Below are positions 13,423 through 18,926 of a DNA stretch of 35,465 bases, in pieces; position 1 is the stretch's first letter, and each line of letters begins with the position of its first letter. Below the pieces are notes generated by a model. It saw nothing but the letters and a program-made list of their open reading frames with translations. It was not told the origin of the DNA and did not search any database. This DNA comes from an uncultured Rhodospirillales bacterium (GTDB lineage: Bacteria; Pseudomonadota; Alphaproteobacteria; CAAGCB01; CAG-977), in assembly GCA_902777205.1 (NCBI GenBank), contig CACYSU010000019.1:1-35465 (forward strand), written 5' to 3'. The translations under genes were made by a program, and so were the position numbers.

Positions 13423-14148
13423 TCAGCGCGAATATTCGTCGCGTTTGCGAATACGCAAAGCCGTGCGCCCCGATTCCTGTTCGCGGCGTTTGGACATCTG
13501 GTATTTTTTGGCGAAATCCGTGTCGCGTTTGGTAATGGCCTGATCCTTCTGCAATCCGCGCAGTTTGCGCAATCTGGAAACGCTGATCTTCTGTCCCTTG
13601 GCGTCGGTGATATACAGTTCCTTTTTGGCTGTCTTTTCCAACACTTTTTTGCGGTTGCGCTCGATTCTGGCGCGGGACAGACGGCGGCGGCGTTCGGACG
13701 GCAGCAGACGGCCGGCGGAATGGCGTTTGCGTTTGGTTTTGCCGCCCAATCCGCGAACGTCGCGTTTTTTCAATTCCATCGGTTTGCTGCGCCCGACGTA
13801 CAATCCGGATTCCTGCGCGCGGGAAATATCGTCGAACGACAGCGCGCCTTCGATTCCCAGACGGCGTTCCTGACGCAACAGGTTGTTGCGTACATCAATC
13901 TTTTCGGCTTCACGGCGGACAACCTCGCGGCGTTCCTTTTCGGCATCGGAAACGCGCGGCTGACGGTTCTGTTCGGCTTTTTCGGCGTAACTGCGATCCT
14001 CGGCCTCTTTGGCCGCGCGCGCCGTGCGGTACAGGACGCTGTCGTCGCGCACCGTGTTGGAATGGACGCTTTTATCGGCGTGACGCTGTTGCCAGACCAA
14101 AGCGCTGTTGTCTGTCAGGCGGATGCGTTTTTTCTTGTTTTCTTCCAT
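13423..14148 (-). CDS. Extremely basic protein of unknown function
   Basis: 241 aa, dominated by Arg, Lys, Glu and Ser, without hydrophobic or signal segments. The first half alternates acidic and basic residues (AKEAEDRSYAEKAEQNRQ) and probably forms long helices. The middle (about 130-180) is a dense basic patch with clusters such as RRRRLSRARIERNRKK, and the C-terminus is again basic. I recognise no family. The charge suggests binding of RNA, DNA or another polyanion, which is inference only. Translation from ATG 14148 is supported by a TATAAT box upstream (minus strand, 14199-14204) and by the terminator right behind the gene, so it is a single-gene unit. It and the SNase-like gene separate tsaE from the DivL-like gene. 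Confidence 0.62.
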   Translation of the reverse strand: MEENKKKRIRLTDNSALVWQQRHADKSVHSNTVRDDSVLYRTARAAKEAEDRSYAEKAEQNRQPRVSDAEKERREVVRREAEKIDVRNNLLRQERRLGIEGALSFDDISRAQESGLYVGRSKPMELKKRDVRGLGGKTKRKRHSAGRLLPSERRRRLSRARIERNRKKVLEKTAKKELYITDAKGQKISVSRLRKLRGLQKDQAITKRDTDFAKKYQMSKRREQESGRTALRIRKRDEYSR

Positions 14149-16725: not shown

Positions 16726-16753
16726 AAAACGCCGGAGTTTCCTCCGGCGTTTT
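16726..16753. terminator. Intrinsic terminator after the first HNH-like gene
   Basis: AAAACGCCGGAG (16726-16737) and CTCCGGCGTTTT (16742-16753) form a perfect 12-bp stem with a TTTC loop and A/T flanks. It separates the HNH-like gene at 16771 from the DivL-like gene on the same strand. Confidence 0.85.
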
Positions 16754-16770: not shown

Positions 16771-17517
16771 TTAACGCTGCGCCTGTTTCGCCATCGCGGC
16801 GACCAGAATCGGTTTTTTCGCGCCGTTCTGGGGCGGGGCGAATTTTTCCAGTTCGCTTTTGCGCTGGGCGGCGTCGGCGACCTGTTTCGCCGTGTAGATC
16901 TTGGGATAATGGGACGCGTTGACGCGCGAAGCGTAATTCGGATGCACCGGCTGGTTTTCCTTGGTGATGCCGAACGATTTCGGGTCGTAAATCATTTCGT
17001 CCGTCCACGGCAGCATGACTTCCTTTTTCTGTCCCGTTCCCATGCAGTCCGCGATTTGCGGATCCAGCACGTCGTGATGCCACTGGTCGTGCGGGTACAG
17101 CGGGGTCATGATGAAGTTGGAAAATTCGTTTTTGCCGCCGCCGTGCAAAGGCAGTTTGTGATGCACGTTGTACCCCGGAACGGAACGGCCTTTTTTCATC
17201 ATGGCGATTTCGGAATCGGTCAGGCCGAGTTTGGCGCGCAATTCCGGTTCGTGTTCGTTGGCCAGCATTTTCAGGAATTTGGAACGGACGCCTTCTTTGT
17301 CGCCGGAACCGTTGAATTCGGCGCGCTTGGCTTCGCGTTCCGATTTGGGCGGAACTTCATAGGTGACCTTTTTCAGGCTCATCCCGTGGATTTTGTCAAA
17401 GTTGAACTTTCCGGCGCGCTGTTCGGCGGTGTAGCCGCTTTGTTTCTGACCTTTGTCCCTGCCGCCTTTGCCGTGGCCGCGTTTCTCGTGAACGTATTTG
17501 TAATCAATATCCAGCAT
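16771..17517 (-). CDS. HNH-type nuclease-like protein, copy A of a tandem pair
   Basis: 248 aa, soluble, no signal peptide. A Gly/Lys/Arg-rich N-terminus (about 10-35) precedes a conserved helical part (GVRSKFLKML, LGLTD). An HNH core follows: NVHHKLPLHGGGKNEFSNF (His119, His120, Asn134) and TPLYPHDQWHHD (His143, His147/148). The spacing recalls colicin E7/E9 DNases (HHxxPIxxGG, then TPxxHIxIH). A C-terminal PWTDEMIYDP / TKENQPVHPNY region is shared with copy B. It may cut nucleic acid as a stand-alone enzyme, a toxin or an effector; no immunity-like gene is adjacent. ATG 17517 has GGGGGA upstream, with its own promoter and terminator. Confidence 0.78.
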   Translation of the reverse strand: MLDIDYKYVHEKRGHGKGGRDKGQKQSGYTAEQRAGKFNFDKIHGMSLKKVTYEVPPKSEREAKRAEFNGSGDKEGVRSKFLKMLANEHEPELRAKLGLTDSEIAMMKKGRSVPGYNVHHKLPLHGGGKNEFSNFIMTPLYPHDQWHHDVLDPQIADCMGTGQKKEVMLPWTDEMIYDPKSFGITKENQPVHPNYASRVNASHYPKIYTAKQVADAAQRKSELEKFAPPQNGAKKPILVAAMAKQAQR

Positions 17518-17555
17518 GAATTCCCCCGTATGCTTTAAAGGACTCTGTTAAGATC

Positions 17556-17584
17556 AACATAGGAAAAATGGACAAAAAAATCAA
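17556..17584 (-). promoter_or_regulatory. Sigma70-like promoter of HNH-like copy A
   Basis: Minus-strand TTGATT (17579-17584), 17-bp spacer, TATGTT (17556-17561), with the start codon 38 bp downstream. Together with the upstream terminator this makes copy A an independent transcription unit. Confidence 0.5.
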
Positions 17585-17627
17585 CAAAAATTTTGCCGCT
17601 TTTTCATATTTGTTCCGGCCGCGCATG

Positions 17628-17662
17628 AAAAAGGCGGAAAACCGCGCCGGTTCCCGCCTTTT
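17628..17662 (-). terminator. Intrinsic terminator after the second HNH-like gene
   Basis: AAAAAGGCGG (17628-17637) pairs with CCGCCTTTT (17654-17662) around a loop that itself contains GC-rich pairing. On the minus strand the stem ends in a T run, 22 bp after the stop of copy B. Confidence 0.7.
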
Positions 17663-17683
17663 GTTTTTTTTTGCGCCGGAAAG

Positions 17684-18496
17684 TTATCCGCGCTGTCTGT
17701 CGCGCACGATCTGACGCAGAGCCGTTTTGACCGGCGCCTGTTTCTGCGCCTGCTTTTTCTGTTCGGCGTTTTTCGCGTCGATGGCCGCGTAGAATTCCTT
17801 CATATCTTTCTGCCGTTTGGCCACGCTGATGTGTTCGGGCTTGTACAGCTTCGGATAGTTCGCCGGATCGACGTTGGATACATAGTTCGGCTTGACGGGC
17901 TGGTTTTCCTTGGTGAATCCGAACTGTTTCGGATCATAGATCATTTCGTCCGTCCAAGGGATTTTGATTTTGCGCGTTTCGCCTTCGCGAATCCCCAAAA
18001 GCTGCGCGTCCATCACGTCCTTGTGGAACTGGTCGTGCGGGTACAGCGGGGTCAGGATGAAGTTTTTGAATTCGTTTTTGCCGCCGCCGTGCAAAGCCAG
18101 TTTGTGGTGGACGTTGAACCCGTTCGGCGTGTAGCCTTCGCGCATTCCCTGAATGTCGCGGTCGGTCAGCCCCAAACGGTCAACCAATTCCTTTTCGTGG
18201 TCTTTGGCCAGCATTTTCAGGAATTTGGAACGCACGCCTTCGACCAGAACGTTGCCGTCTTCGTCGCGCACGCCGTTGAATTCCTCGCGTTTCGCGACGC
18301 GTTCGGCCTTTGACGGGACGGTGTATTCAACCTCTTTCAATTTCAAACCGTGGATCGTGTCGAAAGAGAATTTGCCCTCGCGCTGGTCGCGGTTGTGATG
18401 CCCTTCGGAATAAAAACCGCCGTTTCCCTTGCCGTTGTTGTTGGAACGGCCTTTGCCGTTTTGGCGTTTGGCGTGAACGTACTTGTCATCAATCAT
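17684..18496 (-). CDS. HNH-type nuclease-like protein, copy B of a tandem pair
   Basis: 270-aa paralogue of the gene at 16771. The HNH region is almost identical (NVHHKLALHGGGKNEF, His130/His131; TPLYPHDQFHKD, His154 and His158). So are EGVRSKFLKML, PWTDEMIYDP and TKENQPVKPNY. Differences: a longer Asn/Gly/Lys-rich N-terminus with GHH, a 12-residue insertion (VRDEDGNVLVEG region), and a Lys/Gln-rich C-terminal tail. All putative catalytic His and Asn residues are conserved, so both copies are probably under selection for the same chemistry. ATG 18496 has GGGAG nine bases upstream. No signal peptide, no partner gene. Substrate and role are unknown. Confidence 0.78.
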   Translation of the reverse strand: MIDDKYVHAKRQNGKGRSNNNGKGNGGFYSEGHHNRDQREGKFSFDTIHGLKLKEVEYTVPSKAERVAKREEFNGVRDEDGNVLVEGVRSKFLKMLAKDHEKELVDRLGLTDRDIQGMREGYTPNGFNVHHKLALHGGGKNEFKNFILTPLYPHDQFHKDVMDAQLLGIREGETRKIKIPWTDEMIYDPKQFGFTKENQPVKPNYVSNVDPANYPKLYKPEHISVAKRQKDMKEFYAAIDAKNAEQKKQAQKQAPVKTALRQIVRDRQRG

Positions 18497-18584: not shown

Positions 18585-18926
18585 TTATTTGCGTCCGTCC
18601 GCCGGTTCGCCGTCGTTTTCCGGTTCGACCGGCGCGGGTTGGCAGCGAAAGTAAACCCTGTGGGGCAGAAACACGCGGCACGACCAGTATTTGTGGCCGT
18701 CATAGGCGGCTTCGCGGCCGGTGCGGGCGCATTCCTCCTGCGCCATTTTGAAAATTTCGGCCGCGTTGGTGGAATAGGCGTTGTAACAGATCGCCACGCG
18801 GTCGGGCGTCGATTCGCCCACCGTTTTTGAAAATCCGGCTTCGCGTCTGGAATCGACGAAAGGCTGCTGGACGCATCCGGCCAGCGTCAGCGCAAACAGC
18901 AGCAGCGATTTTTTCACGACGGTCAT
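18585..18926 (-). CDS. Small predicted lipoprotein
   Basis: 113 aa. The signal MTVVKKSLLLFALTLAGC has a good lipobox (LAGC, Cys18). The mature part has conserved-looking cysteines in AICYNAYSTNAAEIFKMAQE, EECARTG, YWSCRVFLPHR and FRC, likely forming two disulfides in the periplasm. I do not know a function. GGAG precedes ATG 18926 by five bases. It diverges from the DHH gene across a 163-bp region and precedes the HNH-like copy B, but 88 bp separate the two, so co-transcription is uncertain. Confidence 0.75.
   Translation of the reverse strand: MTVVKKSLLLFALTLAGCVQQPFVDSRREAGFSKTVGESTPDRVAICYNAYSTNAAEIFKMAQEECARTGREAAYDGHKYWSCRVFLPHRVYFRCQPAPVEPENDGEPADGRK

What the first reader, a model, noticed from the sequence alone, without database searches (positions are those of the whole stretch)
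16771..18496. Tandem pair of colicin-like HNH nuclease proteins of unknown role
Two paralogues (248 and 270 aa) share an almost identical HNH core with all candidate catalytic residues kept (HH, N, H, H), plus a conserved PWTDEMIYDP / TKENQPV block that does not belong to the HNH fold. They have no signal peptide, methylase, helicase or immunity partner, and copy A at least has its own promoter. Retention of both active sites after duplication and divergence of the termini argues for a selected function: stand-alone DNase, secreted effector without a classical signal, or a self-protection or competence nuclease. I do not recognise the family beyond the HNH core.
Basis: partly seen in the sequence, partly recalled or inferred. 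Interest (0 to 1): 0.62.

Follow-up and report, generated by a model that had tools for sequence, protein, structure and literature searches.

The report
T4SS-linked HNH nuclease effector pair (candidate)
Two neighbouring genes of an uncultured rumen-type alphaproteobacterium encode intact colicin-like DNA-cutting enzymes that belong to a larger family, apparently borrowed from bacterial toxins, that is tied genetically to a type IV secretion machine and to immunity-type proteins, so they are more likely injected weapons than housekeeping enzymes.

Summary
In detail: two tandem paralogues (248 and 270 aa, 54% identical) with all HNH residues intact. They are not stand-alone. The genome holds at least seven family members plus a divergent AHH-like one. 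The HNH domain is homologous to the C-terminal domain of an SPbeta-type phage toxin-like protein and of plasmid HNH proteins, whose next gene is SUKH/YrhA immunity. SUKH genes occur in exactly the same 17 of 61 sampled genomes as the HNH family, usually two per genome.

One SUKH follows a monophyletic HNH paralogue ('T') that has lost the catalytic-base histidine and is encoded directly after a VirD4 coupling ATPase. The other lies beside an active HNH gene and is 85-92% identical across the bacterial family. Active members mostly start with a Y-h-H-x-K-R tag and nearly all have Arg in the last two residues (46 of 47; background 17%). The VirD4 tail is strongly acidic.

Best explanation: DNase effectors of a VirB/VirD4 secretion system, derived from polymorphic toxins and neutralised in trans by SUKH proteins. 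Delivery is inferred, not shown. The dead HNH-SUKH pair at virD4 may be a domesticated toxin-immunity pair acting as docking module; this is the most novel part.

The parts
17684..18496 (-). copy B: HNH nuclease-family protein, 270 aa
   Evidence: ORF; orthologues 81-86% identical in congeners; dN/dS 0.055-0.064
16771..17517 (-). copy A: HNH nuclease-family protein, 248 aa
   Evidence: ORF; 54% identical to B; orthologues 61-72% identical, dN/dS about 0.11; AlphaFold2 model mean pLDDT 83
17053..17175 (-). HNH beta-beta-alpha core of copy A (residues 115-155; H119, H120, N134, H143, H147)
   Evidence: invariant in 43 aligned sequences; strands 116-120 and 135-139, helix 140-155 in the model
18002..18121 (-). 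HNH core of copy B (residues 126-165)
   Evidence: alignment
17480..17496 (-). N-terminal tag YVHEKR of copy A
   Evidence: pattern search; conserved in the family and in the divergent AHH-like members
18465..18481 (-). N-terminal tag YVHAKR of copy B
16774..16833 (-). basic C-terminal tail of copy A, ending ...AKQAQR
   Evidence: Arg in the last two residues in 46 of 47 active members; mean charge of the last 20 aa +4.3 versus +0.6 background
17687..17746 (-). basic C-terminal tail of copy B, ending ...VRDRQRG
17637..17655 (-). terminator-like hairpin after copy B
   Evidence: consensus match only
16726..16753 (-). terminator-like hairpin after copy A (12 bp stem plus T-rich tail)
   Evidence: consensus match only
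18585..18926 (-). small lipoprotein-like gene, conserved upstream neighbour of copy B; no family match
   Evidence: same position in relatives L037, L039, L040, L041, L042

Best explanation
Copies A and B are metal-dependent HNH DNases derived from a polymorphic-toxin nuclease domain, and are substrates of the bacterium's VirB/VirD4 type IV secretion system. Inside the producer they are held inactive in trans by a conserved SUKH protein. They are recruited to the VirD4 coupling ATPase through their basic, Arg-ending C-terminal tail, possibly with the N-terminal Y-h-H-x-K-R tag. Docking may involve the catalytically dead HNH paralogue plus its SUKH protein, encoded directly after virD4. They are then injected into a neighbouring cell (competitor bacterium or protist), where they cut DNA. 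Shown by sequence: family membership, intact versus lost catalytic residues, SUKH homology, virD4 linkage, co-occurrence, conserved ends. Inferred: DNase activity, SUKH neutralisation in trans, secretion, docking, target.
For: (1) HNH core invariant in 43 active relatives; fold model matches E9, E7 and AP41 DNase domains, though weakly (no Foldseek E under 0.001; VIA Z 4-6). (2) The family profile matches the C-terminus of a 628-aa SPbeta-like phage protein (E=1e-38), a Cytobacillus HNH gene next to an LXG gene (2e-34) and a plasmid HNH protein (4e-26); the SUKH profile matches the next gene each time (9e-22, 1e-20, 2e-11). (3) HNH and SUKH families occur in the same 17 of 61 genomes; 16 of these have two SUKH copies. 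(4) The dead paralogue T is monophyletic (97/98) and lies next to VirD4 in 13 of 14 distinct loci checked, with SUKH next; a VirD4 orthologue of at least 52% identity is found only in genomes of that same set, 16 of 17. (5) T4SS genes in this genome: VirB8 four times, a TrbL/VirB6 protein near virD4, VirD4. (6) Arg in the last two residues in 46/47 versus 17% of background; charge of the last 20 residues +4.3 versus +0.6; VirD4 tails carry charge -18 to -38 in the last 60 aa in eight f1 genomes. C-terminal Arg-rich translocation peptides are known for Agrobacterium effectors (PMC8525350). (7) The tag and an Arg-ending tail recur in the divergent AHH-like group. (8) LXG nucleases such as YokI and YobL are toxic DNases neutralised by their partner (PMC8321402); TfdA shows that a T4SS can deliver an HNH-superfamily DNase (PMC11253643).
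Against: No SUKH gene lies beside the window pair here or in the relatives checked. SUKH-S is more conserved (92/85/85%) than its adjacent HNH (70/58/51%) and even than QueA next door (86/77/76%), unlike a classic fast-evolving immunity protein. Some active members in other families (L095, L097, L102, L109, L110) have no SUKH within 1.5 kb and were not tested for VirD4. Orthologues are stable over genera, unusual for polymorphic toxins. The conserved ends could be DNA- or SUKH-binding elements, not secretion signals. The background ORF set includes spurious ORFs. Twelve of the 17 genomes come from one family, so co-occurrence counts few independent events.
Confidence: 0.55

Rival explanations
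1. Intracellular nucleases with a conserved housekeeping or defence role (for example restriction of incoming DNA or processing of DNA during uptake), controlled by SUKH proteins. The link to virD4 is historical.
For: Stable orthologous loci across genera with low dN/dS; no linked SUKH at the window locus; highly conserved SUKH-S.
Against: Homology to toxin-like domains with adjacent SUKH; basic Arg-ending tails and N-tags kept while cores diverge; co-occurrence with VirD4-T-SUKH; no match to a known defence family.
Confidence: 0.2
2. A T4SS-linked nuclease system whose job is DNA, not protein, transfer: the HNH proteins nick or trim DNA at the coupling ATPase during export or uptake.
For: Dead paralogue directly after virD4; an HNH-YrhA pair also lies beside a TraG-like conjugation gene on an IncHI2A plasmid; a NERD-like (nuclease-related) membrane protein just upstream of virD4.
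Against: Closest external relatives are toxin-like domains with adjacent SUKH genes; the T protein has lost the general-base histidine; up to seven paralogues per genome is more than a processing step needs.
Confidence: 0.12
3. Orphan remnants of a polymorphic toxin arsenal, kept by drift or as decoys, with no delivery.
For: No signal peptide or linked immunity at this locus; one orthologue is broken (G004 second copy has stops).
Against: Catalytic residues invariant in 43 sequences; orthologue dN/dS 0.055-0.12.
Confidence: 0.05

Closest known systems
HNH C-terminal domain of SPbeta-type phage / LXG-associated toxins with SUKH (SMI1/KNR4, YrhA) immunity
   Same: Same HNH domain by profile (E=1e-38) and same SUKH partner family (9e-22) in the next gene
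   Different: No LXG or other long N-terminal delivery domain; short N-tag and basic C-tail instead; SUKH in trans for the window pair; tied to T4SS, not T7SS
Colicin E7/E9 and pyocin AP41 DNase domains (Tox-ColE7 in the polymorphic-toxin catalogue, PMC3482391)
   Same: HH...N...H...H core and beta-beta-alpha metal-site fold
   Different: Z only about 4-5; no receptor or translocation domains; sequence relation weak (AP41 E=0.014)
Antibacterial T4SS effectors of Xanthomonas/Stenotrophomonas (for example the DNase TfdA, PMC11253643)
   Same: Proposed delivery of an HNH-superfamily DNase by a VirB/VirD4-type system with an immunity partner
   Different: TfdA is an 899-aa GHH protein with a C-terminal XVIPCD and linked immunity gene; here about 190-330 aa, another HNH family, basic Arg-ending tail; XVIPCD was not tested for
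Legionella DotL-DotM-DotN-IcmSW coupling complex
   Same: Works-like analogy only: accessory proteins beside the coupling ATPase recruit effectors, some by charged C-terminal tails (PMC5802825)
   Different: VirB8/VirB6-type genes here; charge pattern reversed; the neighbours are a dead HNH protein and SUKH. No DotI/IcmL was found, but that search had no working control

Membership tests
HNH (His-Me finger) nuclease | HH, N, H, H residues in a beta-beta-alpha fold | tested here: met
HNH (His-Me finger) nuclease | match to a curated HNH family above its cut-off | tested here: not met
   PF01844 12.4 bits versus cut-off 21.4; nothing in NCBIfam. This family is not modelled there; residues and fold carry the assignment
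HNH (His-Me finger) nuclease | metal-dependent DNA cleavage | not testable with these tools
   needs an assay
Polymorphic toxin with SUKH immunity | nuclease domain shared with recognised or annotated polymorphic toxins | tested here: met
Polymorphic toxin with SUKH immunity | immunity gene directly downstream of the toxin gene | tested here: not met
   not at the window locus; met for the sister gene on C9 (L043:5880-6320, SMI1_KNR4 over cut-off)
Polymorphic toxin with SUKH immunity | multi-domain protein with N-terminal trafficking domain | tested here: not met
   248 and 270 aa; only a short tag and linker precede the nuclease
VirB/VirD4 T4SS effector | genome encodes a VirB/VirD4 apparatus | tested here: met
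   VirB8 x4, VirB6-type, VirD4; completeness not tested
VirB/VirD4 T4SS effector | C-terminal positively charged, Arg-containing signal | tested here: met
   a sequence feature only
VirB/VirD4 T4SS effector | VirD4-dependent translocation | not testable with these tools
   needs an experiment
Xanthomonas-type antibacterial T4SS effector | C-terminal XVIPCD domain | not tested
   no XVIPCD model was searched by name; no Pfam/NCBIfam match appeared

The most novel reading that the evidence does not exclude
A polymorphic toxin-immunity pair has been domesticated as part of a type IV secretion coupling complex. A dead HNH protein (T) and its SUKH partner, encoded directly after virD4 in the eight alphaproteobacterial families where this was seen, act as a docking module for active HNH paralogues such as the window pair. 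The highly conserved SUKH-S protein serves as both antitoxin and secretion chaperone, and the acidic VirD4 tail reads their basic Arg-ending tails.
Probability: 0.35. Interest if true: 0.82.

Novelty: new variant of a known kind. Interest (0 to 1): 0.62.

Why it matters
If right, uncultured gut and host-associated alphaproteobacteria carry an unrecognised family of T4SS DNase effectors with a compact sorting code, and a secretion machine has recruited a toxin-immunity pair as one of its own parts. That would explain how several related nucleases can be made without a linked antidote each, and it gives a simple sequence handle (virD4 neighbour T-SUKH, N-tag, C-terminal Arg) for finding such effectors in lineages that cannot be cultured.

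Tried and rejected
Pfam, NCBIfam and PADLOC scans gave no family for A or B. Single-sequence PDB search gave nothing relevant. A Dot/Icm (T4BSS) assignment was considered from the VirD4 neighbourhood and dropped: PF11393 gave no hit, but its controls also gave none, so absence is not shown; VirB8 and CagX matches favoured a VirB-type system. A wider tag pattern over five relatives was too loose (112 matches, 52 with the control pattern); only hits near an ORF start in readable loci were used, and all seven of these were HNH-type proteins. One further tag match on C14 of the own genome was not seen at an ORF start. Fold search with the T model was weak (best E 0.25), so T's fold rests on homology and its predicted strand-strand-helix order.

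Full report
Observation. Both ORFs are present as described and are 54% identical. In an alignment of 43 family members, R65, F68, R78, F81, L93, G110, G115, N117, H119, H120, G127, G128, N130, N134, H143, H147, Q154 and P170 of copy A are invariant, so all HNH residues are kept. The AlphaFold2 model of copy A (mean pLDDT 83) shows strand 116-120, strand 135-139 and helix 140-155, the beta-beta-alpha arrangement, plus outer strands 46-54 and 164-171. Foldseek's best matches are pyocin AP41 and colicin E9 DNase domains, but no E-value is below 0.001. VIA-align gives Z 6.2 to the HNH domain of Cas8-HNH, 5.1 to Rhs2-CT and about 4-5 to the colicin/pyocin DNases. These scores are modest: they support the fold, not a close relation.

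Selection and synteny. Orthologues sit beside the same small lipoprotein-like gene and divergent DHH-type genes in relatives. Orthologue dN/dS is 0.055-0.064 for B and about 0.11 for A; synonymous sites are near saturation, so these are rough. The tree puts A and B in separate groups, each with several congeners, so the duplication is older than the species. One second copy, in G004, contains stops.

Family. The own genome holds seven members at E below 1e-8: the window pair, four on contig C9 and one on C14, plus a divergent one on C20. Relatives in the same family carry three to seven. In a 385-genome sample of the class, 24 genomes have members. Named relatives are MAGs such as Alphaproteobacteria bacterium RGIG5000 from roe deer rumen.

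Origin. tblastn finds the domain in Bacillus SPbeta-like phages and in 456 plasmid records, 432 of them predicted conjugative. The profile matches the C-terminus of a 628-aa phage protein (E=1.4e-38), a Cytobacillus HNH protein beside an LXG gene (1.9e-34) and a Pantoea plasmid HNH protein (3.8e-26). The next gene in each case matches the SUKH profile (9e-22, 1e-20, 1.8e-11). In published work the B. subtilis toxins YobL, YokI, YqcG, YeeF and YxiD deplete chromosomal DNA and are neutralised by their partners (PMC8321402), and SUKH is a dominant immunity superfamily, listed for Tox-ColE7 among others (PMC3482391). That the phage protein is itself an LXG toxin rests on its length and on annotated plasmid relatives; its own record says 'hypothetical protein'.

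SUKH partners. L043:5880-6320, beside an active HNH gene on C9, matches SMI1_KNR4 above the curated cut-off. Its homologue L044:5570-6004 follows the C14 paralogue; it has no Pfam match, but the two align and one profile joins them. The SUKH profile hits the same 17 of 61 genomes as the HNH family: 16 with two copies and G010 with one, whereas HNH numbers vary from one to seven. Twelve of these genomes are one family; the other five are from five different families. SUKH-S identity to relatives is 92/85/85% against 70/58/51% for the adjacent HNH and 86/77/76% for QueA: it behaves as a constrained component, not a fast-evolving antidote.

Link to type IV secretion. On C14, a 779-aa VirD4-type ATPase (T4SS-DNA_transf E=1.3e-56) is followed after 36 bases by a 353-aa HNH paralogue with a Pro/Gln/Tyr-rich N-terminus, then by SUKH. 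This T class is monophyletic (97/98). Its first histidine is kept in 12 of 14 sequences, but the second (general-base) position is I, L, M or F in all 14. VirD4 lies next to T in 13 of 14 distinct loci checked, from eight families, and in the f1 genomes fetched later. In the 61-genome set a near full-length VirD4 orthologue of at least 52% identity occurs in 16 genomes, all within the 17; G010 lacks VirD4, T and one SUKH together, perhaps an assembly gap. VirB8 homologues and a TrbL/VirB6 protein show a VirB-type apparatus; its completeness was not tested. The scattered, duplicated genes resemble the Rickettsiales rvh system, an impression from general knowledge, not a test.

Ends of the proteins. 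Of 47 active members, 35 end in Arg and 46 have Arg in the last two positions, against 8% and 17% of 238 background ORFs (the background contains some spurious ORFs). Mean charge of the last 20 residues is +4.3 versus +0.6. An N-terminal (Y/F)-h-H-x-K-R tag is widespread. A pattern search in the own genome returned seven places, five of them starts of HNH-type genes; the backward control pattern gave six places. In five relatives, all seven tag hits near an ORF start in readable loci lie in HNH-type proteins, including an AHH-like orthologous group (own-genome member: PF14412 E=0.0073, below cut-off) whose members also end in GR, SR, TR or QR. VirD4 tails in eight f1 genomes carry net charge -18 to -38 over 60 residues and end in a conserved DNENYDDFIDEKF-like motif. 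More distant VirD4 tails are less acidic, and one (L061) is not acidic, so the charge idea applies mainly to this family. Arg-rich C-terminal signals are known for Agrobacterium effectors (PMC8525350).

Interpretation. Together these favour DNase effectors delivered by the T4SS and controlled in trans by SUKH. The antibacterial precedent is TfdA (PMC11253643); recruitment of charged tails by coupling-complex accessories has a precedent in Legionella DotM (PMC5802825). Nothing here shows secretion, toxicity or the target. Whether the dead HNH-SUKH pair is an adaptor, a decayed effector-immunity pair or a regulator is open; its conservation beside VirD4 across families argues for a role in the machine.

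Novelty. HNH toxins, SUKH immunity and T4SS DNase effectors are all known. The combination, a small HNH effector family with SUKH in trans and a dead HNH-SUKH pair locked to virD4, was not found in the papers searched, which cover only an open-licence library.

Noticed in passing
L121 (NZ_CP157111.1 140741-142318) and the plasmid hits: HNH-YrhA(SUKH) pair next to a TraG-like gene on an IncHI2A conjugative plasmid; 432 of 456 plasmid records with the domain are predicted conjugative. A conjugative T4SS might deliver it.
   Followed up: partly
L045:3326-4027; L152:825-1523; L158:1495-2190; L160:942-1727; L161:995-1675: Divergent AHH-like HNH orthologues carrying the same N-terminal Y-I-H-x-K-R tag and Arg-ending tail.
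   Followed up: partly
L044:937-1998: NERD-like (nuclease-related, below cut-off) membrane protein directly upstream of virD4, apparently paralogous to the gene before it.
   Followed up: no
window 13423-14148, minus strand: Very basic 241-aa protein without a family match that also ends in Arg (...RKRDEYSR); could be another candidate effector.
   Followed up: no
L119:3498-5095: Cyclase and Pycsar effector genes right next to the LXG-HNH-YrhA genes on a Cytobacillus plasmid.
   Followed up: no
G000:C4:37342-39420: A second, distant VirD4 homologue (35% identity) in the same genome; most f1 genomes have one.
   Followed up: no
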